A DNA stretch of 64,000 nt from Aphrocallistes beatrix (taxonomy: Eukaryota > Porifera > Hexactinellida > Sceptrulophora > Aphrocallistidae), in assembly GCA_963281255.1 (NCBI GenBank), contig OY725493.1, forward strand, positions 2,945,857 to 3,009,856, in the 5' to 3' direction. Positions 8,113-62,290 of the stretch are shown piece after piece. Under the pieces are notes generated by a model. That model did no database searches. It was not told where the DNA came from and saw nothing but the letters and a program-made list of their open reading frames with translations. Both the position numbers and the translations under genes were made by a program. Positions within the stretch are counted from its first letter, which is position 1. The number at the start of each line of letters is the position of its first letter.

Positions 8113-8321
8113 TACACTAGCGGTCAAAAAGAATTACACAGTAAAGAATTATCAATATTTACTAGTTTTTTTAACTGCTATATGTATTTATATGTACTAT
8201 CGAATTGACAAAATATTAATTGTAGTGATCATTAGTACCTAGTTGGGCCCTCCTTAGCATTTGATTACTGCTTCACACCTACGTGGCATGCTCTGGAAGA
8301 GATTGACTAATTTCTCCGATT

Positions 8322-16169: not shown

Positions 16170-17325
16170 TGAGAGGCAAAAGGTTGGATGGATTCGGGTT
16201 CGAACGATTGCCAAATCTCTAAAATCCCAGTCCTTAACTGCTCAACTGTTTTAGGCGCACGTATCATCAGTCTACTCTTAAGGACTGCCCAGAGATTCTC
16301 AATTGGAGCAAGATCAGGGCTGTTAGGGGGCCAATCGATCCTGAGGGGGACAAATTCGGTCCTCCATGCCTTTGCTGTGTGGATAGGGCTATTATCCTCT
16401 TGCAGTGTCCATTCACTACCATAGAGCGCCTTAGCCTGTTATATTAGGTAGCCATTGAGTAGAAATATACCGTTGTTGATTAAAGTTCTCGGTAAAATGC
16501 ACAAAGGGGTAGTCCCCATTACAGAAATCCCACCCCAAACATGAACTTTGGATGGGTGTCGTTAGGAAGGCAATTGTACCCGCTGACTCTTCTTTGTCCA
16601 CACTTTAACCTTTCCTGAGTCAAGTCAAATTGAACATTAGTCCGTAAAGAATGTTTTCGACCAGTCAAATCCTTTCATTTCTCTACACCATTTGATACGC
16701 TTTTGGATCTGGAGATCGGTTAGGGCTGGAACTCGGATCACTGGGGATTTGACGAAATTTTCCCTCATTAGGTATCGATGTACCGTACTTTTCCCGACAT
16801 TCGACTCCAATCGTGTTGTTAACTGTCGCACAGATATCCTAGGAATTGACTTCAGGATATTTGATATCCTCCTCTTGTCGTTTGGTGGAATTTTCCTCGG
16901 GGCACCAGCACCCTGTCTGTGATCGAGACCTTTATTCTTTTTTATTAGCGCAAGAACCCGAAAAATCGTCCTCTCTGGGACATGAATCCTGGAGGAAATA
17001 TCCTTGGCATTGATAATTCCAGCATTGTAGAGAGTCTGAACTTCCAATCGACGTTTTTGTTGTGTTTGTAAACAAGCCATAGATCAAATAACAATGGGTT
17101 GATTGGAAAATAAATGTGTAAAATATGAATCTCAAAATAGGAAAATGACAAAAGTTATGCGGCGCTGATACCGAATATTTCTAATCACAATAGTTAAAGG
17201 GCGTATAAAATATGTTTCTTTTCCATACTCAGTTTAAGAATACGAATTAAACGGTGTGTCAAAAAGTGGTTGAGTAACAATTAAAATTTAAAAATTCGAT
17301 GTACTGCCAATAATTATGGGACATA
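16170..17325 (-). mobile_element. IS630/Tc1-type transposon, 3' truncated
   Basis: One terminus is visible at the right: ATTATGGGACATACTGTAT (about 17310-17330), reading inward as CAGTATGTCCCATAATTATT. No matching left end is found, so the element is truncated near 16140. It carries a decayed minus-strand transposase. Its terminal CAGTATGTCCCA motif also occurs inside the foldback element near 61250. Confidence 0.7.
16180..17080 (-). pseudogene. IS630/Tc1-type transposase, decayed
   Basis: The N-terminal part (17080-16637, 147 aa) begins MACLQTQQKRRLEVQTLYNA and contains two predicted DNA-binding segments (DISSRIHVPERTIFRVLALI, then ISVRQLTTRLES with GKSTVHRYL) ending at GFDWSKTFFTD, the first catalytic Asp. 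A frame change follows. The C-terminal part gives QEDNSPIHTAKAWRTEF (second Asp) and DWPPNSPDLAPIENLWAVLK (Glu). Only 31 residues separate the second Asp and the Glu, against 34 in canonical Tc1. It may have a small deletion or represent a different subfamily. Confidence 0.8.
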
Positions 17326-18260: not shown

Positions 18261-18460
18261 NNNNNNNNNNNNNNNNNNNNNNNNNNNNNNNNNNNNNNNN
18301 NNNNNNNNNNNNNNNNNNNNNNNNNNNNNNNNNNNNNNNNNNNNNNNNNNNNNNNNNNNNNNNNNNNNNNNNNNNNNNNNNNNNNNNNNNNNNNNNNNNN
18401 NNNNNNNNNNNNNNNNNNNNNNNNNNNNNNNNNNNNNNNNNNNNNNNNNNNNNNNNNNNN
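18261..18460. other. Assembly gap, 200 N
   Basis: Exactly 200 undetermined bases, a conventional scaffold gap size, so the true distance is unknown. The translated frame running through it is meaningless. Confidence 0.99.
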
Positions 18461-24298: not shown

Positions 24299-27149
24299 AT
24301 GGAGGTAAAAATTGTGTATACTAATAGTCGATCATTGTGTAACAAAATTGATGAATTTGAGCGAACGCTCGCTGTTGAGGAAGCGGATATTGTGGCTATA
24401 ACCGAAACTTGGTTTAAACCTGACCATGAATTGATGATTCCTGGTTTTGAGGGGTTTTATAGCTCCAGAAAAAAAACGTAGAGGAGGTGGACTAGCATTA
24501 TATTTAGACAGGAGAATGTTGAACAAAGTAGAACTTATTACTTCAAACTCCAATCATGGTTATGATGTTGTCATTGTCAGGCTAAACTTATTCACGAAGG
24601 TTCTGTATATAGCTGTATTTTATCGTCCACCTAATCTGGCATTAGATGAAACTATAGATATGTGTGATACAATTAGAAGGACGTAATCTTAATGGGCGAT
24701 TTTAACCTAGGGGGATAGATTGGACGTCTCAAAGTTTAACAACACCTCATCGGGTCCTGGAATCTCTAAATTTCCTGGAGGTTATTGATGATTTGTTCCT
24801 GCACCTAGACATAATTTTACTGGATCTGACGGTGACATATTAGATCTCATTTTTACCAACGATATGCCATCTGTTAGTAATCTTACGGCTAAACCACCAC
24901 TTATGGGAAGTGAGCACAACATTCTAACCTTTGATTATAAACTGTCGTATTTCAAAAAGCAGTCGAAAATTATATATGTATATGATAGAACCAAGGATGA
25001 TATTGTAAATAATTTTTTCAACGAATGGACTCCGAGATTTTGTACTAACAGACCAATAGAATTGTTATGGAATGATTTTAAGATATTGTATGGCGTTATT
25101 CTCTCATGTGTCCCAAAAAAGAAAATCATTCTGAGGAAAGGTTTCCCATGTTTAAACAACTCTTTATTCAGATCTGCTCTCAAGAAGAAACATATATTAT
25201 GCTGCGAGTATGTAAATAGACCTACTCGAGAAACTCTCTCACTTTATAGAAATGGGAGAAATATTGTTTCTAAATTATCATCCAGCTTACATGGTAACTA
25301 TGAAAAGGATCTAACAAAGCAGTTAAATACTCCCAAAAACATTAAACAGTTTTTCCAATATGCTAAACATCAAATGATGGATGTTGATAGGGCTGTTTCC
25401 CTTATCGACTCTAACGGAAACCTAACATCTGAAGAACAAACAGCTAGTATTTTTGCAGATCATTTCTCAAGTGTATATAATACCCCTTTGGAGAGAGGAT
25501 CATATAAAGCTCCACTAGTGAATGTAGTTAATTATATTAGTAAGATAGTGATAACAGAAGATATGATTTTACAGCAGTTGGAGTTTCTTGATGGATCAAA
25601 ATCTCCAGGGCCTGATGGCATACATCCAAATTTGCTTAAAAGATTCTCCAAAGATTTTGCTAATATACTTTTCTACATTTTTAATAAAAGCCTCGAATCC
25701 GGTATATTACCAAGTGATTGGAAATCCGCGAATATAGTACCAATTCATAAGAAATACTCTAAACTACTAGCTAAGAATTATAGACCTATTTCACTAACTT
25801 TAATTGTAGTTAAAATATTAGAGTCTATTATCAAACCAATCATCCTCAATCATCTTATGTGTAACAATATAATTCATTCAAACCAGCATGGATTCTTGCC
25901 AATGAGGTCGTGTATTACTAATTTGCTTGAAGCGTTGGATGAGTGGAGTTTACTCCTAGACAAAGGGTCTCCTGTAGATATATTGTACATTGACTTTGCA
26001 AAAGCGTTTGATAAAGTGCAACATAGTATATTACTGGACAAATTAGAAGCAATTGGCATAAGAGGGCAGATATTAATTTGGCTGGAGTCTTATTTATTAG
26101 AAAGGAGACAGCATGTCAAGATGGGGAATACCTACTCTGATTGGCAGGTTGTAAATAGTGGTGTTCCGCAAGGATCAGTTTTAGGTCCAATATTATTCTT
26201 AATATATACATTCGATTCTCCTTCAAACTCAGTTTATAGTCTATATAAAATGAACAGTCTTACTGGTGTATCATATTTTGCTGATGACACAAAATATATG
26301 ATGAACAATGCTCACAGAGTTATAATACAGCCCTATCCGATAGTTTAGCTGATATGGTAGATTGGTCGCAATTAAATTATATGCCAATTAATCTTAATAA
26401 GTCTCAGGTTATTCACCTAGGGAAGCATAACCCAAGATTGCAATACACAATGAAGTCAGAAGTTATTGAAGAAACAGACACAATCAAGGATTTGGGAGTA
26501 TGAATGGATAGCAGGGTTTCGTTTAGTGGACACATTGCTAAAGTATGTTTTAGCGCTAACTAATAGACTAGTAGGATTGTTTAGAAGAACTTATGTACAT
26601 ATTACTGCAGATATTTTTAAGATTTTCTATAAAGTATTCATCAGACCAAAGTTAGAGTACGCTTGCCATATTTGGTCTCCCTATTTGGTTAAAGATGTGT
26701 TAAAATTGGAGAAGGTACAGAGGAGGGCTACGAAATGTGTAAAGTCTCTTGCTAAATTACCATATAGGGAAAGAATGCGGGCTTTGGGTTTGATATGTTT
26801 AGAAAATCGGAGAAAGAGGGCCGACTTAACTTTAATGTGGAAGTTTATTAATGGTGATGTCTATATTAAGTTTAAACACCCCCCTATTTTGAGACCGGTA
26901 GGAAGTAAATGCCGAGGCCACTCGTTTACTCTTATACACCCCTCCGATCGCCCTCCTAAGAGTAAGTTGAGAACCAACTTCTTCACAGAAAGAATAATAA
27001 GATTGTGGAATGGTTTACCAGAAAGTACTGTATCAGCTCCATCCTTGTCAACTTTTAAAGGGAGATTGGATAGTTTCTGGAGTAGTGAACATAATTTGCC
27101 TCCCTGTCACTGTGACAAACCGAATGATTTTTGTATTCCCTTATCTTAA
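24299..27149 (+). pseudogene. LINE ORF2: AP endonuclease and reverse transcriptase
   Basis: The endonuclease part has MEVKIVYTNSRSLCNKIDEF, then VAITETWFKPD, then MGDFNLGGIDWTS and, later, MGSEHNILTFD. The reverse transcriptase (24864-26348, 494 codons) has SPGPDGIHPNLLKRF, ILYIDFAKAFDKV (catalytic Asp), NSGVPQGSVLGPILF and YFADDTK. The C-terminal CR1-type segment (26466-27149) has RTYVHITADIFKIFYKVFIR and FFTERIIRLWNGLPEST. Frame changes occur at an A-run near 24475, after the endonuclease block near 24685 and near 26315, and a TGA interrupts DLGV-MD near 26503. It would have cut target DNA and reverse-transcribed its RNA; now inactive. Confidence 0.9.
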
Positions 27150-31189: not shown

Positions 31190-31324
31190 TAAAAAAATTT
31201 CCTCTCCTTTATCGACCCTCTATTCAATAGAGGGCTAATTGGGAGCATTTTTTGGATTGTTGGGAAACGGGAGGTTTTTGAGTGGAATATAAATTGAAAT
31301 ATAAATTCCGTTTTAATAAATTGC

Positions 31325-31370
31325 GCTAAGTACTTTCTAGCGCAAGCGCTCGGTACTTTTAAATATATGC
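31325..31370 (+). promoter_or_regulatory. Candidate promoter area of AP-3 beta
   Basis: CTAGCGCAAGCGCTCGG is a short GC-rich palindromic patch, followed by TTTTAAATATATG, a TATA-like run about 55 bp before the ATG at 31409. This is positional inference only. If the ATG exon has an upstream exon, the promoter would be elsewhere. Confidence 0.25.
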
Positions 31371-31408
31371 CCTATATTCATACTTTAATATTTTATTTAT
31401 TTAGTACA

Positions 31409-31822
31409 ATGACTACTTCTATTTCGGGATACAATGCAGAAGTTCAAACAAATTCATTATTCGACTCAACCCCTCCTTTTGCTGGTTTTGTTACATCAAA
31501 GGAAAGCCGTCGTTCTAGTAATTCTAGCCTACCCGGATCAGATCCAACTTCTTTTCTCTCTCAGAATTTCAGGAAATTTGATGACCTTCGCCGTTTGCTA
31601 GATAATAACAAAGACTCTCTGAAGCTTGAGGCAATGAGAAGAATAATTGAAATGGTTGCTAAGGGTCAAAATTGTAATGATCTCTTTGCTAGCGTAGTAA
31701 AAAATGTTGTTTCTAAGAATACAGAAGTTCGAAAACTAGTTTACGTTTATTTAGAAAGATACGCAGAAGAACAACAAGATCTTGCACTACTCTCAGTTAG
31801 TACATTCCAAAAGGCACTTAAG
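31409..31822 (+). CDS. AP3B: AP-3 complex subunit beta, first coding exon in window
   Basis: 138 codons from [13 protein letters not shown] to STFQKALK, ending AAG|GTATTC, a good splice donor. [20 protein letters not shown], then [34 protein letters not shown] and [20 protein letters not shown] are the hallmark N-terminal adaptin repeats of AP-3 beta, which forms the large subunit of the AP-3 coat that sorts cargo from endosomes to lysosomes and related organelles. The start is taken at 31409. An upstream in-frame ATG (31367) would add 14 hydrophobic residues not expected in the family, and TTTATTTAG before the ATG could be a splice acceptor, so a 5' non-coding exon is possible. The next exon is 15.5 kb downstream. 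Confidence 0.92.
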
Positions 31823-31829
31823 GTATTCT

Positions 31830-32950
31830 CAATTCGCATTTAATTAACTGGTTATGTGTTGTAGTAATTCCATTATAAATCGACCAATCCTATCTATGCT
31901 TCCCGCATGAAAAATATTAGCTATCAATTCCTTAGTTTTTATGTCCTATATAGCCCGAATTATCGATTTTTTTATGATCGAGCACTTGATTATTTAGAGT
32001 TCTCCTCCTTAACTTGACCATATTTTGCTGATCGCTACGCCTAGATGTCTTGGTATTTTTCTAAATGATACTAGGTAGGATACGAAGTGATCAAAACGGT
32101 TTGTCTTTGTTCATGTGATTTAGCCTCTTGGTCCAAATAGTTTTTATTAATTAATAAACTTATCGAAGTTTCCAAAGTTTTGAGATGAATTCCTTCACAG
32201 GTTTTTGTAGTCAGGCTTTATACAGGATTTTTGTCCTGGGGAGAATCATTGGGGGCTGTTTTGTTTCTTGCTAATAGTGTGAGTTTAGTGCGAGGGATTT
32301 GAGGTGCGTAAGCAGAAGAATTTATTCTTTCAAGCATGTTCTTCGACGTTCCAATGTAATAATCGATTGCAGGTATCTTGTGTTCACTTGGGCTAAGTCC
32401 AACACTTGGTCACATTCTGTTAAATTTTTGTTCTTTTGACAGTGATTTCAATTAGTAATTTGATCTGCCGATACAATATATATATGACATTCTCAGTAAA
32501 TTGTGCCCTGCTTAACGGTCAATATTCTATGTTTTAAATTTGAGATTTTTTAAGAACATACTTTCTTTAGAATTTTTTCTTTCAATAATAAATTAATAGT
32601 GTTTATTCTCTTTCGTTTGCCCATGTTTTTAAAGTAATTTATAAACTTATAACATGGTATAACGCTAATTTTAAAGTGTAGCCTTTACCAAATTTTTATA
32701 AATAGAAATGCATCCAATTTATTTTTTATAATTAATTTCAATCGTTCCCAATCTATGCAAAACTAGATTTGGTATACATTAGAAACAAGTTTGAAGTTCT
32801 ATGAAGTCTTGTAGCCATTGAAATTCTTGTAATAGCAGTTGCACAATTGATGATATCTAATAATCAAAAGGGTCAAATTTACTATCCAATAGCTCGGAAT
32901 GGAATGTAAATACGATCAGATTTCATAAATTCAAAGGAATTTACATTAGC
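31830..32950. other. Intron start without recognised repeat
   Basis: About 1.1 kb of low-GC sequence directly after the first exon. No repeat in the window matches it and no frame is convincing. It is the least repeat-laden part of the intron and may be ancestral intron sequence. Confidence 0.4.
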
Positions 32951-47321: not shown

Positions 47322-48181
47322 GATCCTAATCAACTTATACGTTCTTGTGCCCTTCGCGTACTTTCAAGCATCAGAGTGCCGATGATTGCCCCCATAGTCA
47401 TGTTAGCTATTAAAGATTGCGCCCAGGACATGAGTCCCTATGTCCGAAGAACGGTAGCACACTCAATACCAAAATTATTTGAACTTGATCCTTCTCAAAA
47501 AGATCAACTAATAGAAGTTATTGAGAAATTAATGAAAGATCAATATACAATGGTGATGGGAAGTACTATAGTAGCCTTTGAACAAGTATGTCCTGATAGA
47601 ATTCAATTCTTACATCAGAACTTTCGTAAACTTTGTAATGTCTTACCTGATATAGACGAGTGGGGCCAAGTATTTGTTCTGAATCTACTCACAAGATATG
47701 CACGATCTCAATTTTTGAATCCTAATATTCTAGATCATCCATCTATAGAGGAAAACTTTTACTCTAGTTCTGATTCAAGTCCTGATTTAACCAAATGCAA
47801 TCAATCTGTTGCATTTAAATCTGATTCTTTAGATCATGATCATCGTCTTTTATTGCGGGCATCTCGAACTCTGTTACAAAGTCGAAATTCATCTGTTGTA
47901 ATGGCAGTAGCGCAGCTATACTATCATTTAGCACCCAAGAATGAGATATCCCATGTTATTCGTCCTTTGATTAGACTTTTAAAATCGCATCGTGAAATAA
48001 GAACTGTTGTTTTGATAAATATTGCAACGATGTCCACGAAATATGGTAGCCTTTTCGAACCTTTCCTTAAGCAATTTTTTATAACCATCGATGAACCCAC
48101 ACTAGTAAAGAAGATTAAATTAGAGATACTTATCAATTTAACCAATGAAGTCAATGCACCAACAATTCTCAGAGAGTTCAG
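47322..48181 (+). CDS. AP3B: AP-3 complex subunit beta, second coding exon in window
   Basis: 860 bp starting DPNQLIRSCALRVLSSIRVP in phase 0 after TTTTAG, ending ILREF plus two bases at CAG|GTAAAT. Hallmarks of the adaptin trunk are YVRRTVAHSIPKLFELDPSQ, then IEVIEKLMKD, ALTRYAR-like LLTRYARSQF, DHRLLLRASRTLLQSRNSS and VVMAVAQLYYHLAPKNEISH. An acidic/serine-rich insertion (NFYSSSDSSPDLTKC) is where the family is variable. Together with the first exon this gives about 425 residues of the N-terminal trunk. The hinge and ear would lie beyond the window. No frame damage is seen; the coding sequence reads as functional. Confidence 0.95.
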
Positions 48182-48322
48182 GTAAATTATTTACAATGTA
48201 TTTTATTATCGTTGTTGTTATAGCCCAATTTGGAGAATTTTTTCATAATCAATTTCTGTTCCCTAAATATTCGAAAGTTTTATTTTAGTCAATGAGCATT
48301 CCCATGACTTGCCTTTGATATA

Positions 48323-49901: not shown

Positions 49902-50135
49902 AGGTATATACAGTGCCGGTCAAAAAGAATTGCTCAAAATCAAGGAATACAGTATAGTAAATGTTGAATAGTCTCAACTCACTAGATTGTTAGTTTCTTG
50001 CGAAACCATATACATCTTTGGTTATTTTGATAAGTAACACCCAAATACAGATATTCCATTCATTATATTTGTACAACTTCGCTATTTCACTTCTCTATCT
50101 TTATTTACAATTTATCAGTATTTCTCCAACTTTCG

Positions 50136-53100
50136 ATGCCTTCGAAACCCCGAATTTCCATTGAAAATCGAGCAAACCTAATATTGTTATCAAAAAGCGG
50201 CCATACTCAGAGGGAGGTAGCTACAATGGTTGGGTGCAGCCAAAATAGTGTAGCTGAGATCCTAAAGAAACATAGACTGACAGGCTTGGTAAGAGACATC
50301 ACTATTCCGGGTAGGCCTGTTGCGTGAGATTTCCACACCCGTGAGATTCTTACACCCTTGTATTAGTAAACCAGGGATATCCTAGTAGGAGCGTGAGAAC
50401 TCCACACCCGTGAGATTCTTACACCCTTATATTAGTAAACCAGGGAAATTATAGTAGCGTGAGATTCTTACCCTCTTCAATTGATAAGGCAGGAATATCT
50501 TCGTAGCGTGAGATTTACATCCCCCACACTCAAATAAAACTTAGGCAATGCTAATAATATTCAATACTCTCTATTTCCTGACATTGAATGATGCTCGCAA
50601 GTAACTGTTTCAATAACAATGCCTTCCTCTTTACCATAGCTTGAATTATTCACGAAAATACTATGTACCTATTCACAGTAGATTTAAGATGTTTATTTTG
50701 ATACCAATTGCGTCTCTTCTATATATATATCCTGAGATCAAGAGTCACCATTTAAATATGTTCTCATTCCTTTGATATTATGGTTTCAAGTGTTTCAACT
50801 AATTTTAATTTTTAGCTTCATGTTTGGAGATGTCCTTGTTGATGAATCTGGATTCAAATTTGTTTATAAATCTTAAATTTTAAACATGCAGCCATGAATT
50901 ACGTACAATGACTCTGCCCTTAAAATGATACTAACATTGTCTACTTTCAAAGCATGTAACGCTAATTTCTTTAAGAACTAATAGCCAAATGTCTAGAATT
51001 GATGACAAATATAAATCATAATTTAGTTCGAATAAAAGTAACATTCAAACATGGGAAAGTATAGATAAATATTACTAAAAGTCTCTGTGCATTCTTCTTC
51101 TGTACATGTCATCTCGGTTTCTCCAGACTTAGTTTTACAGAGCGGTGTGCATTCACCAATTAGTGCTTAATTTTAGATGTGATGGCCTCCTCCTCCCCAA
51201 TAGCCATCCCGTTCCTCTCCAGCGAATAGATTTACAAGGAGTGCGATGCGAGTAAATAGTAATTTGGTATAATTGTGATGGCCTCCTCCTCCCCAATAGC
51301 CATCCCGTTCCTCTCCAGCGAATAGATTTACAAGGAGTGCGATGCGAGTAAATAGTAATTTGGTATAATTGTGATGGCCTCCTCCTCCCCAATAGCCATC
51401 CCATCCCGTTCCTCTCCAGCGAATAGATTTACATGGAGTGCGATGCGAGTAAATAGTAATTTAATTGAAAATGATGGCCTCCTCCTCCAAGGCTGTAGTT
51501 AGCAAATATTTATTGGTGTGGCTAAGTGGCGTTTCCAGAATTGAAATTAGTCGGAATGAGAGCATGAATTCCCATTCGTGGTGCGGTGGACAAAAATATT
51601 TGTGCGACAGCCACCGCACCTACCACACTTGCTCCTACGGCCTTGGTTCTCCCCTACTAGCCATCCTGTTCCTCTCCAACGATAATTGTTTATAAGGGTT
51701 GCGATGCGAATATGTAGTAACTTGTATAAAAGTGATCGTCGCCTCGTCTAAACAAATTATCCCGCTCCGTTTGGGATGCCAATCCAATCCACTCCACTCA
51801 AATTTTATGGAATCACTAATTTCTAACGCTCGAAATTTTAGCATGAAAGAGAATTACTATTGTCGACAATTAAAAAAAGTCGGTATCATTTTTCGTTTGA
51901 ATTATATTCATTCATTTTTAGAATAGCCTGATTAAGTGCCTGTTTTCGAAAAACTAAATGGAGCGATCGATTATCTAAATATGATAGACTGGCTTGAATT
52001 GGCATTCCTACACACACAATAATTATGCTCTCTCCAGACAAAATCGAGTTTATTACCAATGGTTGCATAGCTACTATCCTGCCAAAAATATTAATGCACA
52101 ATAATATTTCCATATAGCTAATTATAAGCAGTGCTTTTAGGAAGTATAGCAATTGAATATTTAGAGAATGAATTTAAGACCAATTAAAAAGTTTGTCACT
52201 CACCACTAGTATAGATTTGCTAAAAATACTTAACTTATTGTTATTATTTGTATGGAAATATTAGGATGTACGAATACTTTGGGAAGATTAGTATTTCCAT
52301 ATTCGAGTGTACCGCCTGTCGAGTGTACCGTCAGTCGAGTGTACCGCAGGTCGAGTGTACCGCAGGTCGAGTGTACCGTCAGTCGAGTGTACCGCCAGTC
52401 GAGTGTACCGTCAGTCGAGTGTACCGCAGGTCGAGTGTACTGATAATAAATACAGCTGACTCCGCTTAATAGGGCAAACTTTTGGCAGGACTGGAATAGT
52501 ACATAGCTAATACAAAATGTTTATGTTTAATAGGGTTCTCTAGTTAATTGGTCCAAAATGTCCTCTGACCGATGTGGTCCTCTTAAGCGGAGTCGACTGT
52601 AGTAGCGAGAGTAGCTGGTCGATTCAACATTACAGACAAATACAAATTGTGGTATCTAATTGTCTCTTACTATGCTAGAAAAAACCCTAAAATTTAAAGA
52701 TATTTAAAAATTTAGAAATTGAAAACAAATTCAAATACATTTGATAGACAAATCTTTTTACTCAAATTATTTTTTATGTTTGGATTATCGTCTTGATAGC
52801 ATAAAATGAACATTTAGATACCACAACAGAGTCCTAAGTTGACTAATTCACGAACTAATGAATAATTCGAATAATTCATAATTCATCAAGCCTGAGAAGA
52901 ATTATTCAAAATTGAATCTTTTTACAAGAAAATATCATGAATTATTCGAATAATTCATAATTCATCGTCATTTTTTAACTTAGCAACAGAGATATTTTAG
53001 ACACTTTGCAAATACTCACCCAGACAGTTAATTTAGAAGTTGAATTTCTTAAAAACTCACTTGTCTTCTGTTCCAATATGTGTTTCGTCCCGGCTTGGAC

Positions 53101-56100
53101 TCGTCAGTTGCGTTGCCTCTCCCGCAATACACTTGAGATGGATGTCTGGTGTTTAGTGTTACTTTGTTCAGCCAGTAAATGAGGGAGGAAAGATCGATAA
53201 TGCTATCATCTGTCCGGTATATTTTGTAATGCTATCATCTGTCCGGTATATTTTGTTCGCAACATAAATATCCGTCTTCAGCAGTGCAGATGCAGCCATT
53301 AATTCCACATCACTTCCCCAGTTGCCTGTGTTATACATACACTTCTCACTAAGATATTCTGCAGGAGTAGTTGCCAAGACCTGACTGAAGTACCAACCAA
53401 TTGTATCTTTACCCTCGCTGAGTATGTATCGACAAATTTCGCCCCGGAGCTTAGCGTGATACTCCTCCCTGCCGGTAATTATCTTGGAAAGGCACCTGAA
53501 AAGACTATTACCATTATCTCCAATTGTATCGAGTGTCCATGGCTCAAATAAACTTAAACTATGCTCCGCGATGCTAGAATGTTGGTCTGTTTGTTGATGA
53601 AATTGGAAATCTAGCAGCGCACATTTCTCTTTCTGCCACTCAACTGTTGTGGGTGTTATGATGGGACTGTCAGATGTTAGATGGTCGAGCCGTGGAAATT
53701 TCTCCTTTCTAAGCAGTAACAGCTTATCTTCTATATACTCCATTGCCTGAATTTTAGGAAAATAAAGATTGGTAACATTATATGTCTAATATTGAGCAGT
53801 GAATATTAACTTAAACATGCTCACCACTCCATAAATTACTTTGTCAACATAATCGCATATTCGAGATGCACCTAACTCCGGAGAGATTCCTTTCACAAAT
53901 TCCATCAGTGAAGAGTTAATCTCTCTTCTCTATAGAGACAAAAATATCAAGATCACGCAAAAATGTAATTAAGGAAACAGAATCATAAGCCAAATTAGAA
54001 CAATAGCTTTTTACGTACCACTGTTTCTGGAGAGGAATCTTTCAAATTTGATAAATAATCAAATTTGGGACGTAGAAGCCTTTTACATTACGAGCCTTTT
54101 CCAATTCCTCGTGAAGTATCGACATGTAGGCTCCACGGCGTGCGTGATCCGTAAACGCCAACTAAGAGAATATCGAATTAGTTGTCAATTTACATAATAA
54201 ATAAGGATGATAAACAATTTTGAGGGGTGGCAACAAACCTTGAAGTTATCCAATTCGTTCAAAATTAACTCTTCTGATATGCCAAATTTCCAATCATTCT
54301 GGGGCACTGTTCTACTTTCCTATTTATAATATAATTTTAAATTTTGCAAAATATTTTGTCAGTACATGATAAAATAATTATATTACCTTGTATTTCTTTG
54401 TAACGTTGGTTGGGAGATCACTGTTTTTACGCTTTGTCAGTTTGGCTTCTGACCGTGGAAAGTAGGGCCTAGCGAGGTGAAGCGGAATTTTTCTGCATTT
54501 AAAGTCACTGCCTTCCTTGACAACTAGTGCATGACTATCCGTTACTTCAGTTGCAATAACAGGCCCAATATATTTAGGTTCTGTCTTAGTTCCTGGCATT
54601 TTCTTGGCTTTTCGTATATTCCGGAAAAGAATTGGATCTCCTTGATTGATTTTCGAACTGTTGAAAGAGATTCCATTAAAACAGTTACAATTACCTTCTA
54701 TTAATGCAAAATTACCTGTTTTTCTTCACTTTACTATCAAATACATGTTTCTGCTTTAATTACTCTTTCAAGATGTCAGCATGAGCATTTTTCCGTGATA
54801 TAGACTGAGCTTCCATTAGTGGGCATATCCATTCATCAAGATTTTCGGAGTCGTGGGAGACTGTGTCAGCTCTTTCATCAGGATTGGTTAGAATTTGGAT
54901 ATTGTTTAGATCCTCAATATCTTCAATTTCAACACGTATATTAGTATGAGAAAATAGTTCAATACAGTTAGCTTCTCTGCCATACATCAGGTAAATGGTG
55001 AGTAATCTGTTGATCTCTTCCAACATGTATTTGCAGCCAGGACAGCAGCTTGTAATTTGCTCGGCCATTCTTCTCCTGTTTCTTTTACCATTTTATGGAG
55101 CTTGGTTTTAATTATTTTATCATGTGCTTCGACGAGACCATTACTCTCTGGATGGTAAGCAGTTGTCTTGCGATTATCAACTCCCAATTTCCTGTGAAAT
55201 TATTGAACTCCAAATGATAACTTTACAATTAAAAAATACTTTTTGGAATTGGTTTTCCTTGCAAAGAGCCACATACCTTGCTAACAAACTCAGGACCTTG
55301 ATCATGCTGGATAACCTGAGGTACTCCTAGAGTAAAATAAATACTCTCCAGCTGTGTCAAAACTTCTCTACTTGTTTTTGTTTTCAAAGGGCGGACTGCA
55401 GAGAATTTACTGAGGTAACATGTTGTTACCAGGAGATGTTTATACCCTTCTTTGTTACCTTGTAAATCGCAAACAAGGTCAATACCAATATGTTTCCAGG
55501 GTTGATCTGGGGGAGAGATTGGATGCAGTTTTCTTTGAGGTTGAGGTGGTAGTGCAGTTTGACAACCATGACAAGTTTTTACCTAAAGAAGACAAACGAT
55601 ATAATTAGTAATGGAATGCAATAACAAGATGTTTACCGATTTCACAAGTTATCTTCAAGTTGCGAGATATTTGTCAGGAATTATTTGATAGTTACGATTA
55701 CAAACGATTGCGTGAATGGGAAAATATTTTTGCAATAAGGGATGACTTGAATGAAAGGCATTTATCACAATGTTGAACAAGTGGTATTGGGTAACTAATT
55801 TGGCTTCATGTAAATTCAAATAACACACTTGATTATCAAATTCAGGCGATAATACATCAATAAAACTTGTTAATTATCAAAATAAGATTCTTTTATGTAT
55901 GTCTAAATTTATAACTCCAGTACTTATGTTAAAATGTAGGTTTATATTAAAGTGCAGGTTCATAGTTTTGACTAGAATAATCTCCAGTATTGAAATCCTA
56001 TGAGTAGTCACTAATCAGGATTTTTTTCTAAGACTAAATTCAAAATGACATTGTTTACACAATCCATAAGAAAAATTGTAATGCGAAAATCGAACATACA

Positions 56101-58177
56101 TATTCTCTAATTTCCTTGCTCATTCCTGGCCAGAAATACTTCTGTTTGACAAGCTTGATTGTACTGTTGATACCAGGATGTGCAGGACCGTTGTGGTACA
56201 GTTTGATGACATCTGCAACTCGATTTGAACCAACAACTTCGTAGGTATGCGATTGGTTTCCGTTTATCTTCACCTATTAAAGTAATAAATTAACAGTTCG
56301 GATATTTGAAGTATCAGTCATGTACATTGTACCACGCACTAAACCAATGCGTCGATTATAGATACAGGGATGTATTATGATACGAAACAATGCACCATAC
56401 CATACCACTGTTTCTCAGAGAAATTGAGAAGTTAAATTGGATATACATTGGATCCTCTACAATGGTGGAGGGCTCGAGCCGCCAGAACGGACTCCATTTC
56501 CCATATATGTGAGGTAAAAATGGTGTAGCTCGCTAAAATATAATCCAATTCTTTTAGCTCAATTAGTGTCCCATACCTATGGACTCTCCCCATCACCATT
56601 TACAGTTTCATTATACAGGTGACTCCGCTTAATCGAGACACTTTGTTCCCGGATATTTTGTCCCAATTAAGCGATGAAATTTGGTACATATTAACTTCTA
56701 TGTATGGGAACCATTTCGTTCTTGGAGACTTGTCCCGATTAAACGGAGTTGACTTTATTTCTATAACTTATTACTTGTTCTAGATAGTTGAGAAATAAAA
56801 GTAATGATAAAATGTTAGAACAAAATTTATGCATTTCCTTGAAAAGTTTATCATCTTTTCCCGACTACATATTGTGAGGCTTTGACCTGAAAGTTCCTCT
56901 TTACCTGACACGTCTTCTTCTTTGATTCGAGAACAGATGTGGGATACACATCTTGAGTAAGGAAGTTCGAGATCGCTTCGTATTCTTCAGTTAACATCTT
57001 ACGAGCTTTGATCTGCTACTTTAGTCTGTTCTGTCTTTGTTTGGTTTAGTTTGGTTTGGTTTGTGTTCTGTTTGTAATGCTTCAATGTAGATTTTCCTTA
57101 TACAAACATGGACAATTCATGTATATATATCGATCATAGTATCACTAATATTATATTATTCCTAATTGAATGTAAGAATCTCACGGGGTGTGGAAATCTC
57201 ACGCTACAACTAGAATATCCTTGGTTTACTAATATAAGGGTGTAAGAATCTCACGCTCCTACTAGGATATCCCTGGTTTACTAATACAAGGGTGTAAGAA
57301 TCTCACGGGTGTGGAAATCTCACGCAACAGGCCTCGTGTCACAACCAAAAGGCAAGACAGTTTGTTGGTCAGAAAATTCAAAACGGATCGATTTAAGACT
57401 GCTACTCAGATCAGAGCCGAAGTATTATCAGAATATTCGCTAAAACTTTCCACTTCAACAGTCCAGAGAAGGTTAAGAGGGGCTGGACTGTTCGGACGGA
57501 AACCACGAAGGAAGCCCCGCCTAACTCCCAAGCATAAGAGAGACCGTCTTGCCTTCGCAAGGGCACACAAGGATTGGAGTACTAAAGAATGGGCCAGAAT
57601 TACGTTCAGTGACGAATCTCGATTCCTTCTCTATACTAATGACGGGAGAGTATACGTAAGGAGAATGAAAGGGGAGGAGTTTTCGGAGAGGTATATTCAG
57701 AAAACCTGCAAATTTGGTGGGGGTGGCATCATGGTTTGGGGATGTTTTTGCTGGAGTGGCGTGGGACTCTTGTGGAAAGTATCTGGGAACCTCAAGACAG
57801 ATTCCTACATTGATATTTTGGAAAATGCTCTAATTCCAAGCGTTGATTTGAATTCTCTACACTCTGGATGGACATTTCAGCAGGACAACGCCCCATGCCA
57901 CAGGTCAAAGGGTACTAAGCAGTGGTTTGATGAGCAAAAAATAGAGGTAATGGATGGGCCGGCACAGTCACCTGATCTAAACCCGATTGAGAACCCTTGG
58001 GATCAAATTTCCATAAGCATTCAAGAGAAAAGCCCATCCAACCACTCGGAGTTGTGGAATGCTATATTGAGTACTTGGGACAGTATCGACATTAACCAGC
58101 TCCATACTCTGATAGATAGCATGCCGCAAAGATGTAAGGCTGTAATTCAAGCAAGGGGTGGTTCTACTAAATACTAA
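50136..58177 (+). CDS. Tc1-like transposase, split by Ginger1
   Basis: The first part (50136-50317) is MPSKPRISIENRANLILLSK through a helix-turn-helix (TQREVATMVGCSQNSVAEIL) to ITIPGRP, the GRPR-like minor-groove motif. The second part resumes at 57334, RVTTKRQDSLLVRKF, continues through the second DNA-binding segment (STSTVQRRLRGAGLFGRKPR), FSDESRFLLY (first Asp), FQQDNAPCHRSKGTKQWF (second Asp) and SPDLNPIENPWDQI (Glu, spacing 34), ending GGSTKY. The insertion lies exactly in GRP|R. Odd residues are G in DGPAQSPDL (usually W) and P in ENPW (usually L). Total about 342 residues, normal for Tc1. Transposition function is currently blocked. Confidence 0.93.
50314..50317. repeat. Ginger1 target duplication, left copy (GGCC)
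   Basis: GGCC immediately precedes the TGTTGCG terminus. The matching copy is 57330-57333. Confidence 0.9.
50318..50520. repeat. Ginger1 left terminal inverted repeat with subterminal repeats
   Basis: The first about 81 bp match the right end exactly. GCGTGAGATT or GTGAGATTCTTACACCC recurs four to five times in 200 bp, with TTAGTAAACCAGGGA spacers, so the end is built of about 80-bp tandem units. These repeated words are plausible transposase-binding sites. Confidence 0.9.
50521..51170. other. Ginger1 non-coding interior
   Basis: No exon was recognised. Could contain the 3' UTR of the transposase or further short exons. Confidence 0.4.
51175..51475. repeat. Tandem repeat, about 95-bp unit, three copies
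   Basis: GTGATGGCCTCCTCCTCCCC, followed by CAATAGCCATCCCGTTCCTC and GGAGTGCGATGCGAGTAAAT, repeats three times almost identically. The third unit has CCATCCCATCCCG, a 5-base expansion. Diverged partial units follow at 51470-51490 and 51645-51740. Confidence 0.93.
51476..52300. other. Ginger1 non-coding interior, continued
   Basis: Diverged tandem-repeat remnants at the start, then AT-rich sequence without recognised coding signal. Confidence 0.4.
52305..52443. repeat. 16-bp minisatellite (CGAGTGTACCGYMRGT)
   Basis: About eight head-to-tail units of CGAGTGTACCGTCAGT, CGAGTGTACCGCAGGT and similar. The long frames through it are translations of the repeat (VECTVSRVYRQSS). Confidence 0.95.
52453..52599. 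mobile_element. Pogo-type MITE inside Ginger1, 147 bp
   Basis: The ends CAGCTGACTCCGCTTAATAG and, reversed, CAGTCGACTCCGCTTAAGAG are inverted with TA flanks. Non-coding. Confidence 0.85.
53061..56997 (-). CDS. Ginger1 transposase: integrase-like core plus OTU domain, spliced, decayed
   Basis: Nine exons with GT/AG borders: 56997-56905 (MLTEEYEAISNFLTQDVYPT), 56273-56100 (zinc-finger His pair in KLYHNGPAHPG and YFWPGMSKEIREY), 55582-55277 (CHGC, then GIDLVCDL first Asp and QHDQGPEFVSK second Asp), 55191-54716 (AYHPESNGLVEAHDKIIK with Glu), 54657-54387 (GPY/F-like KYIGPVIATEV), 54319-54239, 54161-54019, 53929-53825 and 53746-53168 or to 53061. The last exon has the OTU domain: GDNGNSLFRCL and GNWGSDVELMAAS. 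The catalytic Cys of DGNCLFR is Ser. Most introns are phase 0. One-base frame changes in exons 4 and 7, a stop in exon 4 and a 29-bp duplication near 53200 disrupt it. It would have catalysed cut-and-paste transposition. Confidence 0.85.
53199..53257. repeat. 29-bp tandem duplication in the OTU exon
   Basis: AATGCTATCATCTGTCCGGT plus ATATTTTGT occurs twice in direct succession. 29 is not a multiple of three, so it shifts the frame and truncates the OTU domain. Before the duplication the frame may have run to a GTGAGT donor near 53060. Confidence 0.9.
56616..56755. mobile_element. Pogo-type MITE in Ginger1 intron 1
   Basis: The left end CAGGTGACTCCGCTTAATCG and the right end, reversed, AGTCAACTCCGTTTAATCGG are inverted. 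CCCAATTAAGCG words lie inside. A half copy is at 32955-33025. It lies between exons 1 and 2 of the transposase gene. Confidence 0.78.
57170..57329. repeat. Ginger1 right terminal inverted repeat
   Basis: Exact inverse of the first about 81 bp of the element, then an approximate second unit (TAATATAAGGGTGTAAGAAT) and a third (CACGGGGTGTGGAAATCTCA). Ends CGCAACA at 57329. Confidence 0.93.
57330..57333. repeat. Ginger1 target duplication, right copy (GGCC)
   Basis: GGCC directly follows the CGCAACA terminus. Deleting one copy with the element restores the Tc1 frame (GRP-RVTTK). Confidence 0.9.
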
Positions 58178-58282
58178 TGACAATTTATTCGATTATGATA
58201 AAGAATTACTGTCAAAATTAATAAGGGACTTAAAAATTTTGAGTAAATTCATTTTGAGCAATTCTTTTTGACCGGCACTGTA

Positions 58283-59364
58283 TATACGGGGGTTGTCCCG
58301 AAAGTCCGCGGACTTTTTAAAGAAACCAAGCAACTTTTTAAAGAAACCATAAGAGTGGTGCAAATTAACATTTGATAATCTTTTAATCCAACTATTTCTT
58401 ATTTTCTACTGTATAGCAAGCATGACTTTCTATTTCTTATTGTGTTCAATATTGCATTGTGAAAAATTCTTGCTTTTCTCCGAAATAGAATCTTTTGAAG
58501 AAAGTAAACGGACTGTAATTTGGTTCTTATGGAAACAAGGGAAATCTGGTTCTGGGACATTAACTGAGATGTCAGAAGTGTATTGAGATGAATGCCCAAA
58601 AAAGACGATGGTATATCTACAAGTGGATTGAGCGATTTTCTGTGTTGGGTGGAAAACTGTTGGGAAAGCACCACGTAGTGGCCGTCCAAGTTCCACTATT
58701 TTTCATGGTAATATTCGAGCATGTGAAGAAGGTAATAGATGAGGATCGTCGTATCACATTTCAGAGAATTAGAAGAGAAGTTGGGAATCCCTAAAACGTC
58801 TATTCACCTTATACTTACTGCACATCTTGGAATGACCCTAGTTGTGGCTAGATGGGTCCCAAAACTTGTATCTGAACAACAAAAGCTTGCGCGATTTCAG
58901 GTTTGTCATACTCCTATCAAGCTTGGCAGCACGAGAAGGATTACCTCAAGCGTAGTGTGACTGGAGATGAATCATGATTCCATTTTTATGACCTGAGTCT
59001 AAATTTCAGAGCAGCCAGTGGAAAAGAAAAGATGAAGCCCCGCCAATAAAAACCAAGTCCCTTCCAACAGCGGGAAAGACGATGGTCACAGTATTCTGGG
59101 TTTACGAATGTATTTTACTGATTGAATGGTTGCCAGAGAAAACGACAATCAATAGTGATTATTACTATATTACAATTTTAAAGAATTTGCGTGAGTGAAT
59201 CAAGAAAGAACGAGAAAGAACGCAAGTTGACTAATTGAATTTTGTTACAGCATGATAATGCAACACCCCAATCAAGTGAGAAAACGAAGGCAATCATTAG
59301 CGAACTAGGCTTTGAATTGGTGCTACATCCTCCTTACAGCCCAGATCTAGCCACCAGCAACTTG
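58283..59364 (+). pseudogene. Mariner element and transposase remnant
   Basis: CGGGGGTTGTCCCGAAAGTC at the left resembles a mariner terminus. Fragments on the + strand are DEDRRITFQRIRREVG, GIPKTSIHLILTAHLGM, VARWVPKLVSEQQKLARFQV, VTGDESWFHFYD-like (with first Asp), LLQHDNATPQSSEKTKAIIS (second Asp) and ELVLHPPYSPDLATSN (third Asp in YSPDLA). This is the mariner DD34D layout. It has many frame changes and stops, and it is truncated at 59364 by the pogo-like MITE fragment. It starts 2 bp after the Tc1 element. Confidence 0.8.
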
Positions 59365-59365
59365 A

Positions 59366-59454
59366 TTTTCCACAAATGTCGGATTATGGAGGTTATTCGA
59401 TAATCCGACATTTTTTTCGTCTCTCATTGAATGTCGGATTATGGAGGTTCCACT
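59366..59454. repeat. Pogo-type MITE right-end fragment
   Basis: Matches the final about 110 bp of the MITE at 11255-11736 (ATGTCGGATTATGGAGGTTA, ending GGTTCCACTG). The left part is missing where the mariner remnant ends. Confidence 0.8.
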
Positions 59455-59467
59455 GTATATATATATA

Positions 59468-59947
59468 CACTACCCGGACAAAAGTATTTGCACACTTCAT
59501 TTTCTTACGTGCATTTAATACTAAAATGGGTCTATTCATGAAGATTAAAACTCCGAAACAGTAAGTGATACAACTAATCGGGTTTCAAATTTGGAATCTT
59601 CGCATTCGAATTAGTTATTGTAGGATATTTCTAATCAATTACTAATTCCCAATTATTTCAAATTATCAATTACTGCCACCTTGGCTACATATTTCACTTT
59701 TTATCACTATACATGATGGTGATGTACTACCCCTTGTGCCACAGGTTGATAATTTTACTCATTGGGTTGAGCCATTTGTTAGAAATCTTCAACTATTACT
59801 AATTCGAATGTGAAGATTTCGAATCTTAAATCAGACTCTTAATAGCTCTTAGAGTTTGAATATTTTTCAATTCATGAAAAGATCAATTTTGTACTATTTG
59901 TATGGGGAAGAATATAGTGTACAAATACAACTTTTGTCCGGTTAGTG
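59468..59947. mobile_element. Tc1-type MITE family B, full copy, 480 bp
   Basis: The ends CACTACCCGGACAAAAGTAT and, reversed, CACTAACCGGACAAAAGTTG are inverted, TA flanked. The body is palindromic as in 45482-45958. Confidence 0.83.
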
Positions 59948-59949
59948 TA

Positions 59950-60393
59950 TATCTGTAGCGAATTGATTGAAGAAACTGCCAGGCACAGAAGGCTGATTTT
60001 GAGCTTGTGGGAATATTTTTGCTATGGCTTTTACCTCAGAGGAAAATGTCGACTCATCATGGAATTATGACGTCATTGTCACCTTTTTTAGAATTAGAAT
60101 TTTCAGTTTTTTGCCTATAATTCAGTCATTTTAGGTGACAGAAGGCTGAAATTTTAATTGAATGGGTATATTAATATATCTCAAATATGAAAGACCTCTC
60201 ATCAAAAATGATGACTCATCACTCTGTCAATAACGCTATCATTACGAATCAAAAATTTTAAATTTGGCAAATTTTGTGATCTTTCGTGTGATATCGATTA
60301 TAACATTAAGACAGACGTATTTAGAGATGTTATCTACTTTCTGATTAATTAATATCAGCCTGCCGCGCAGCGTAAGCAAGCGAAGCGTGCTTG
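59950..60393 (+). repeat. CRE-bearing dispersed repeat, shortened copy
   Basis: ATCTGTAGCGAATTGATTGA to AGCGAAGCGTGCTTGT. TGACGTCA is kept near 60067. The second site has lost the palindrome (AATAACGCTATCA) and the hairpin region is partly deleted. Confidence 0.85.
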
Positions 60394-60544
60394 TTTTATT
60401 AAATATCAGCCTTCTACCACCTAAAACAGCTGTGTTGTAGTCGAAAAATTGATATTTCTAATTATAAAAGGTGACATTGACGTCATAATTCCATGATAAG
60501 TCGACATTTTCGATTGAGGTCAAACTTGGACCCATAAATATATA
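60394..60544 (-). repeat. CRE-bearing repeat, partial inverted copy
   Basis: TATCAGCCTTCTACCACCTA, then TGACGTCA near 60479, then TAAGTCGACATTTTCGATTG. It abuts the preceding copy in opposite orientation, making a broken inverted pair. Confidence 0.7.
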
Positions 60545-61085
60545 TACTATACCTAACATTAATCACGAGTGGGAAGTTAGCAGCGAGATATGAGTAATTT
60601 CTCAGTCAATTCTCATCAATCATGGTCAAACTTGTCCTATGGCATAATCTAGTATGGGGCTTTTCTCTATTCTGATAGTTAGTGTATATCACCTCTCCTC
60701 AACTCACAATGACATTGCAATTTTCCAGTACAAAATCCCCATAGACAATTTCGAGCACTACTCTTATCACGCCTCCTCAAATTTCTTTTCTGACTCCCTG
60801 ACTGCATACAACGTTAAGATTTTTATTTGGAAAATACCATGGGCAGTCAACCGAGAAATTTTGACCAAAATTAAGCCCATGCCACTTTGGCATGTTTGGG
60901 CCATTTTTTTAATGCAAGCTTAAATATTTTTGTGGCGCCTGAATAATTCGGACAATTCCCCTTTCAGGAAATTCTACTAAATGATCATGTATAGTGTTGA
61001 TTTATTTTTGTTTGAACTCATGGAATATAGAGGAGCGGAACAAGGGGTCACTCGATGGGGTTACTAGGAGGTTTGAGATTGAAAT
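60545..61085. repeat. Dispersed repeat, inverted relative of 5620-5815, and unassigned sequence
   Basis: GCAGCGAGATATGAGTAATT, CATGGTCAAACTTG and GCATAATCTAGTATGGGGCT are the reverse complement of 5650-5810. 60725-61085 is unassigned. The 89-codon frame at 60654-60923 has no known domain. Confidence 0.55.
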
Positions 61086-62290
61086 ATTGCACATTCCTGT
61101 GTCGTCCAGGAAAAATATTGAGCTCGAATATAGTCATGTGACCCTTCAAATTTCTCCAAATTAAATGCTGAGTACGAATATCAACATTGAAACCTATTGA
61201 GTATGTCATGGCTGGTCCAACCGAGATTGGGAATTATGGGTATTCACAGTATGTCCCAAATTATTGGCAATGAACTTTAACCTCGTGTAATATTTAACAT
61301 ATGTTTAGGAAGAGTATTATCATTTTAAGATAATTTCATTTACGCGTTTTCATCCTATATATACACTACAACCCATGCTGTTAAACAGCACCTTTTCTGG
61401 AATGCAAACTCATTTTCTTAGTACCAATCTAATCCCATCAAAAATCTATCACAGTTTTTATTGCAATGTATTCTTATATACTACTGAATTTAGTTATCCA
61501 ATATTCATGTTATGTATATATCATTTAGTTGTGTAATTTTGTTTTTTTTTAAAGATTCAGAATGATATAGTAGGATTTGAAAGTCAGAATTATGTGAATA
61601 TTTACTTTAGCACAAAATGACAATGTAAAAATTGTAATTTCGCTCTTAAAATTCACAATTTTATACTGACCTTGTTTAAAGGTAATAGTTTAACTAATAA
61701 TTAGGACTCTTAGTTAGGATTAAACTCAAGTACAATTAAATTATATTTTAAAATTTTTTTCCTTGAAAAATCTAACTATTTTTTCAGAGTCTAAATCTTG
61801 TTGAATCCTTTAATAAATACTCCAAAATTACACAACTAAATGATATTTACATAACATGAATATTTGCATAACTAAATTCAGTAGTATATAAGGCATTGCA
61901 TTACATACTGTGATAGATATTTGCTGGGATTTTCAAAAAAATTGGTACAAAAAAATGAGTTCGCTTTCCAGATAAGGTGCTGTTTAACCGCATGGTATGA
62001 TAGTGTGACTCAAGATAGTGTATATATGATGAAAACGCGTAATTGAAGTCATCCTGAAATTATAATACTCTTCCTAAACATGTGTTTGATATTACACGAG
62101 GTTAAAGTTCATTGCCAATAATTTGTGACATATTGTGAATACCCATACTTTCCAATCTCGGTTAGACCAGCCATGACATACTCAATAGGTTTCAATGTTG
62201 ATATTCGTACTCGGCATTTAATTTGGAGAAATTTAAAGGGTCACATGACCATATTCGAGCTCAATATTTTCCGGGACGACGCAAGAATGT
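61086..62290. mobile_element. Large foldback element, arms about 460 bp
   Basis: The left arm (about 61090-61545) is repeated in reverse at about 61830-62285 with roughly 85-90% agreement: GTCCAGGAAAAATATTGAGC versus GCTCAATATTTTCCGGGACG, TATTGAGTATGTCATGGCTG versus its complement, and CTGAATTTAGTTATCCAATA versus its counterpart. The central about 280 bp is only partly palindromic. CAGTATGTCCCAAATTATTG inside the arm resembles the terminus of the IS630-type element at 17330. Non-coding. Confidence 0.8.

What the first reader, a model, noticed from the sequence alone, without database searches (positions are those of the whole stretch)
50314..57333. Ginger1 DNA transposon inserted in the reading frame of a Tc1 transposase, with clean excision geometry
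Seen directly: a 7,012-bp element with TG...CA ends, about 81-bp perfect inverted repeats and GGCC on both sides. It splits an otherwise intact Tc1 gene at GRP|R, and removing the element plus one GGCC restores the frame. Established: Ginger1 elements have long TIRs, Gypsy-integrase-like transposases and OTU or Ulp1 domains. Inference: the Tc1 copy was coding-intact when hit, so both families were active at nearby times.
Basis: partly seen in the sequence, partly recalled or inferred. Interest (0 to 1): 0.82.

Follow-up and report, generated by a model that had tools for sequence, protein, structure and literature searches.

The report
Ginger1-like transposon inside a Tc1
A 7-kb jumping gene with a retrovirus-like integrase landed inside the gene of another jumping gene; the junction is clean, but the kind of element is known and this copy is probably broken.

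Summary
A 7,012-bp element (50318-57329) starts TGTTG, ends CAACA, has 81/81 identical inverted ends and GGCC on both sides. It interrupts a Tc1 transposase gene at GRP|R; the joined flanks give an open 341-codon DD34E frame. Its minus strand carries an H2C2 finger, an integrase core and an OTU domain; I found no LTR, gag or reverse transcriptase. This is the Ginger1 layout of Bao et al. 2010.

Corrections: the copy is probably broken (frame change in the integrase, 29-bp duplication in the OTU exon, no splicing found that keeps D35E). The OTU catalytic Cys position reads Ser. GGCC is neither CCGG nor CCGT/ACGG, the Hydra Ginger1 targets. The duplication shows insertion, not excision. Contemporaneity is loosely supported. 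Nine copies of an 18-bp motif fill the ends (0.02 expected), perhaps transposase sites. No source genome is held, and seven scans for relatives found none. An ordinary nested insertion; low interest.

The parts
49911..58280 (+). Tc1-type element (1,354 bp without the insert), CAGTG...CACTG ends, TA on both sides; its 29-base tips match perfectly in inverted orientation
50136..50317 (+). 5' part of the Tc1 transposase gene (HTH_23), ending inside codon 61 in the GRPR linker
57334..58177 (+). 3' part of the Tc1 transposase gene with its stop (HTH_Tnp_Tc3_2, DDE_3, DD34E)
50314..50317 (.). target site duplication GGCC, left
57330..57333 (.). target site duplication GGCC, right
50318..57329 (-). 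Ginger1-like DNA transposon, 7,012 bp, transposase gene on the minus strand
50318..50398 (+). 81-bp terminal inverted repeat, left
57249..57329 (-). 81-bp terminal inverted repeat, right
50323..50475 (+). 4 copies of an 18-bp motif (0-3 mismatches) in the left end
57168..57324 (-). 5 copies of the same 18-bp motif (0-3 mismatches) in the right end
56869..56997 (-). candidate exon 1 (YP...F...Y stretch)
56100..56273 (-). candidate exon 2, Integrase_H2C2
55277..55582 (-). candidate exon 3, integrase core with the first two D residues; its 3' edge is uncertain (4 junctions to exon 4 found, none with 35 residues between D and E)
54716..55191 (-). candidate exon 4, third catalytic residue E; frame change inside it; its 3' part holds an in-frame stop unless splicing uses the GT at 54763
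54387..54657 (-). candidate exon 5, GPY/F-like module reading GPV
54239..54319 (-). candidate exon 6
54019..54161 (-). candidate exon 7; 3' edge uncertain: changes frame if it runs to 54019, stays open if it ends at 54087
53825..53929 (-). candidate exon 8
53171..53746 (-). candidate exon 9, OTU domain, Ser at the catalytic Cys position; 29-bp tandem duplication near its end (53198-53256)
52451..52601 (.). palindromic MITE-like insert (about 150 bp, 23-nt arms) within the Ginger element
56614..56757 (.). second MITE-like insert with related ends, in candidate intron 1

Best explanation
A Ginger1-like DNA transposon inserted into the coding sequence of a Tc1 transposase gene. Its integrase-type transposase (made by this copy before decay, or supplied in trans) bound the repeated 18-bp motifs in the ends and joined the TG/CA ends to target DNA with a 4-base stagger, and host repair produced the GGCC duplication. 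Shown: ends, repeats, duplication, restored Tc1 frame, domains. Inferred: the binding role of the motifs, the staggered joining, the source of the transposase, the exon model, and that this copy is inactive today.
For: 81/81 identical ends, TGTTG start, GGCC on both sides; 81 against at most 11 in 100 shuffles. Restored 341-codon Tc1 frame with HTH_23, HTH_Tnp_Tc3_2 and DDE_3. Integrase_H2C2 E=2.9e-13, rve E=8.7e-07 (29.6 bits, just under the 32.6 cut-off) and OTU E=3.6e-08, all on one strand in the Ginger1 order. The integrase piece also matches PFV integrase in the PDB (E=0.0003). Candidate exons 1-3 join through GT-AG introns into 203 residues without a stop. None of 10 further reading frames matched a Pfam family above its cut-off, and none a gag, RT or retroviral protease family at E up to 1. 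No long direct repeats that could be LTRs.
Against: GGCC is not the CCGG (75%) or CCGT/ACGG (24%) reported for Ginger1 in Hydra, although the Tc1 target holds 4 CCGG and 4 CCGT/ACGG sites. The GPY/F position reads GPV, and 9 candidate exons (8 introns) exceed the 0-4 introns in Bao's table. No Ginger1 sequence could be aligned, and no second copy was found. The gene model has no transcript support and its exon edges are uncertain in three places.
Confidence: 0.88

Rival explanations
1. The Ginger element entered the Tc1 copy elsewhere, and the 8.4-kb compound was then carried to this place as cargo by Tc1 transposase.
For: The outer Tc1 ends are intact with TA flanks, which fits this order as well as the reverse.
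Against: Tc1 elements much longer than usual generally move poorly (recalled, not tested). A second copy of the compound could not be sought.
Confidence: 0.08
2. The element was already broken when it moved (trans-mobilised copy), rather than decaying after insertion. This is a variant of the best explanation, not an exclusive alternative.
For: Two likely lesions in about 2.26 kb of candidate coding sequence (frame change inside the integrase, 29-bp duplication in the OTU exon) and three weaker ones, against none in the 1.0 kb of Tc1 coding sequence, while the ends are perfect.
Against: If lesions fell at random over both genes, both falling in the longer one has probability about 0.47, and all five about 0.15 (my arithmetic from the lengths), so later decay is not excluded.
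Confidence: 0.35
3. The element is an intact, many-exon Ginger1-like gene with unusual splicing, so that what I call lesions lie in introns.
For: GT-AG junctions exist that avoid the stop in exon 4 and the frame change in exon 7, and 4 would bridge the frame change in exon 4.
Against: Those across exon 4 remove integrase-like residues, or are only 29 bp long; the 4 junctions found from exon 3 to exon 4 give 17, 20, 26 or 37 residues between D and E, none 35; the 29-bp duplication is not a multiple of 3.
Confidence: 0.1
4. A Gypsy LTR retrotransposon fragment flanked by chance by inverted repeats.
For: The integrase core resembles retroviral integrases.
Against: No RT, gag or LTR found; perfect 81-bp inverted ends with a target duplication; OTU domain on the same strand.
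Confidence: 0.01

Closest known systems
Ginger1 DNA transposons (Bao, Kapitonov and Jurka 2010, PMC2836005)
   Same: TGTNR ends, 40-270 bp inverted repeats (81 here), 4-bp duplication, about 2.6-7 kb length (7.0 here), H2C2 + DDE integrase-like transposase with C-terminal OTU, introns
   Different: GGCC rather than CCGG or CCGT/ACGG; GPV rather than GPY/F; about 8 candidate introns rather than 0-4; Ser at the OTU catalytic Cys position; probable lesions; repeated 18-bp motifs in the ends (the words 'tandem' and 'subterminal' do not occur in that paper's main text; its figures were not seen)
Ginger2/Tdd
   Same: TGTNR ends, integrase-like transposase with H2C2
   Different: AT-rich RTATAY targets, no GPY/F or YPYY (PMC2836005); here a GC-only target and an OTU domain
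IS3EU/GingerRoot
   Same: integrase-related transposase
   Different: usually 6-bp duplications, mostly TA..TA ends, no HHCC motif (PMC10045372 passages)
DD34E/Tc1 transposons (the host element)
   Same: 1.35 kb, TA flanks, 341-aa transposase, GRPR motif (GRPR in the DNA-binding domain of Tc1/mariner transposases: PMC7731502 passage)
   Different: split by the insert

Membership tests
Ginger superfamily | DNA transposon with terminal inverted repeats and TGTNR ends | tested here: met
   TGTTG...CAACA, 81/81
Ginger superfamily | integrase-like transposase with H2C2 and DDE core | tested here: met
   Integrase_H2C2, rve just under its cut-off and PFV integrase match; E residue read by eye in the next exon
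Ginger1 | 4-bp target duplication | tested here: met
   GGCC on both sides; outer bases differ; Tc1 frame restored with one copy
Ginger1 | CCGG or CCGT/ACGG target sequence (reported from 112 Hydra elements) | tested here: not met
   target is GGCC; one insertion cannot define a preference
Ginger1 | YPYY motif before the zinc finger | tested here: inconclusive
   candidate exon 1 has YP, then F, then Y; the published alignment is a figure and was not seen
Ginger1 | GPY/F motif | tested here: inconclusive
   candidate exon 5 reads GPV in an integrase-like setting; no Pfam match
Ginger1 | C-terminal OTU or Ulp1 domain | tested here: met
   OTU, 34.4 bits against a cut-off of 23.3; catalytic Cys position is Ser in the alignment to OTUD1, itself weak at E=0.0084
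Ginger1 | groups with Ginger1 in a tree of integrases | not testable with these tools
   no Ginger1 proteins held; scans of viral and genome contigs with the integrase and zinc-finger pieces gave none
Gypsy LTR retrotransposon | LTRs, gag, reverse transcriptase | tested here: not met
DD34E/Tc1 (host element) | TA flanks, inverted ends, HTH domains, DD34E, GRPR | tested here: met
   the 34-residue spacing counted by eye

The most novel reading that the evidence does not exclude
A Ginger1 lineage with a changed target (GGCC instead of CCGG), a many-exon transposase and an OTU domain that has lost its protease nucleophile and serves only for binding.
Probability: 0.1. Interest if true: 0.4.

Novelty: new member of a known kind. 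Interest (0 to 1): 0.22.

Why it matters
The state before insertion is unusually well defined, because the target is a conserved protein motif. That gives one certain target site for a Ginger1-type element, and a natural place to look for empty or excised alleles, since the mechanism of Ginger1 excision is stated to be unknown (PMC2836005, Discussion). Otherwise it is an ordinary nested transposon.

Tried and rejected
No whole genome is held for this window, so copies, empty sites and the species could not be examined. Seven scans for relatives found none: integrase piece in viral contigs (11 pattern matches, none a relative) and genome contigs (32 pattern matches, none a relative), OTU piece, zinc-finger piece, Tc1 piece, terminal DNA patterns. 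These collections hold viruses and prokaryotes, so the misses say little. AlphaFold of the OTU reading frame alone gave mean pLDDT 39 and was not used. NCBIfam gave matches below the curated cut-offs only, the strongest IS630 for the Tc1 piece (88.8 bits, cut-off 100). Among 10 further frames of the insert, Pfam gave only matches below cut-off, most of them in one frame of the 96-bp tandem array, best DUF5541 at 24.1 bits (cut-off 25); taken as chance. Rfam gave no match in the window at gathering scores. Searching 58400-61000 for a distal inverted repeat of the mariner remnant gave only a trivial 16-base match. LTR retrotransposon, Ginger2 and GingerRoot readings were rejected (see membership). 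A first count of five certain lesions was withdrawn on checking: three of them can be avoided by other splice sites or depend on exon edges, and the confidence of the trans-mobilised rival was lowered from 0.45 to 0.35 for that reason. Searches of print; in their listings I saw no report of a GGCC-flanked Ginger1, but most listed papers were seen as search listings only. Papers: PMC2836005, text parts 1 and 2 of 5, Discussion, and passages; PMC10045372, PMC12863088, PMC10871703 and PMC7731502, passages only.

Full report
Observation. The element runs from 50318 to 57329 (7,012 bp). Its two ends are identical in inverted orientation for 81 of 81 bases, with the first mismatch at position 82. 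It begins TGTTG and ends CAACA, and GGCC stands directly outside both ends. Shuffling one 301-base end 100 times gave shared runs of at most 11 bases against 81 observed. A gapped alignment shows that the similarity continues inward after 17 bases present only on the left.

Repeated motif in the ends. An 18-bp motif (CGTGAGATTCTTACACCC, up to 3 mismatches) occurs 9 times in the 64-kb window, all 9 within the two ends of the element (4 left on the plus strand, 5 right on the minus strand); 0.02 are expected from 100 shuffles. Tandem Repeats Finder shows the same arrays as units of 69 bp on the left and 52 bp on the right. I read these as multiple transposase-binding sites; that is inference.

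The target. The insert lies in a Tc1-type element with outer ends at 49911 and 58280, TA outside them, and 29-base tips that match perfectly. Without the insert it is 1,354 bp long. Joining the flanks with one GGCC gives a 341-codon open frame. The two parts match HTH_23 on the left, and HTH_Tnp_Tc3_2 (E=1.6e-18) and DDE_3 (E=1.3e-13) on the right. The spacing between the second and third catalytic residues is 34 by eye. The insertion falls in codon 61, inside GRPR, a motif described in the DNA-binding domain of Tc1/mariner transposases (passage of PMC7731502). This conserved motif supports the empty-site reading independently of the duplication.

The insert's gene. On the minus strand there are an Integrase_H2C2 finger (E=2.9e-13), an integrase core (rve, E=8.7e-07, 29.6 bits, just below the curated cut-off of 32.6; PFV integrase in the PDB at E=0.0003) and an OTU domain (34.4 bits, cut-off 23.3). 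Candidate exons 1-3 join through GT-AG introns into 203 residues without a stop. In all I propose nine candidate exons and eight introns, more than the 0-4 introns listed for Ginger1 by Bao et al. (PMC2836005). The model rests on reading frames and splice dinucleotides located by eye, without transcripts. None of 10 further reading frames of the insert matched a Pfam family above its cut-off, and none matched a gag, RT or retroviral protease family. No long direct repeats suggest LTRs.

State of the copy. It is probably broken. Two signs are strong: the integrase-like reading changes frame inside candidate exon 4, and the OTU exon carries a 29-bp tandem duplication, not a multiple of three. 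A third concerns splicing: the four open GT-AG junctions I found from exon 3 to exon 4 leave 17, 20, 26 or 37 residues between the second D and the E, none the 35 typical of integrases (the typical value is recalled). Two weaker signs, a stop late in exon 4 and a frame change in exon 7, could be avoided by other GT-AG junctions. The frame change in exon 4 could also be bridged by four GT-AG combinations, but two of these are only 29 bp long and the other two (53 and 74 bp) remove integrase-like residues. The residue aligned with the catalytic Cys of OTUD1 is Ser, in a weak alignment (E=0.0084). Whether the lesions arose before or after insertion cannot be told: the 1.0 kb of Tc1 coding sequence has none, but with two lesions that has a chance of about 0.47, and with five about 0.15, under equal decay (my arithmetic; 2,261 bp of candidate exons).

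Timing. If unconstrained, the Tc1 frame would stay open with 5% probability at 1.5-2.0% neutral change for assumed indel/substitution ratios of 0.15-0.10, and at 6.4% if only stops are counted. Identical 81-bp ends give 1.8% at the same level. An alternative order, in which Tc1 carried the Ginger insert here as cargo, fits the same anatomy.

Comparison. The layout (TGTNR ends, 4-bp duplication, H2C2-DDE-OTU, introns, length at the top of the 2.6-7 kb range) is that of Ginger1 (PMC2836005). It differs in the target, GGCC in place of CCGG (75%) or CCGT/ACGG (24%) in Hydra (Figure 1 legend: 112 elements), although the Tc1 target holds 4 CCGG and 4 CCGT/ACGG sites; in GPV for GPY/F; and in the Ser of the OTU domain. 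Since a reported Ginger1 feature was tested and not met, on a single insertion, I file it firmly in the Ginger superfamily and call it Ginger1-like, and leave strict Ginger1 membership to a tree and more copies.

Surroundings. The Tc1 lies about 1.7 kb beyond a large coding piece of the AP-3 complex beta subunit (47322-48182; best PDB matches are AP-3 beta chains, E about 1e-103), with an upstream piece at 31298-31840 (Adaptin_N). I recognised no further AP-3 exon by eye among the plus-strand frames downstream, so a place in an AP-3 beta intron is likely but inferred. The Ginger element itself contains two MITE-like palindromic inserts. The species is unknown.

Noticed in passing
31298-31840 and 47322-48182 (+): Two coding pieces of the AP-3 complex beta subunit, about 15.5 kb apart; the Tc1/Ginger compound is probably in the next intron.
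   Followed up: partly
58992-59400 (+): Pieces of a decayed mariner-type transposase (Transposase_1 E=1.7e-15, DDE_3 below cut-off) shortly after the Tc1 right end; the element's own ends were not determined.
   Followed up: partly
61112-62270: Large foldback structure with 253-nt arms, 92% complementary, and several shorter inverted pairs nearby.
   Followed up: no
52451-52601 and 56614-56757: Two palindromic MITE-like inserts with related ends and TA at their edges inside the Ginger element; from recall they look pogo-like.
   Followed up: partly
51178-51488 and 52303-52440: A 96-bp x 3.2 and a 16-bp x 8.6 tandem array inside the non-coding part of the Ginger element.
   Followed up: no
24792-26348 (+): Reverse transcriptase (RVT_1, E=9.4e-25), by its context a non-LTR element (recall); another weak RVT_1 match at 756-1247 (-).
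   Followed up: no
16640-17083 (-): N-terminal part of another Tc1-type transposase (HTH_Tnp_Tc3_2 E=5.3e-10).
   Followed up: no
8115-8143 (+): A weak match (7 mismatches of 29) to the tip of the Tc1 element; may be chance.
   Followed up: no
18261-18460: Run of 200 N, a scaffold gap.
   Followed up: no
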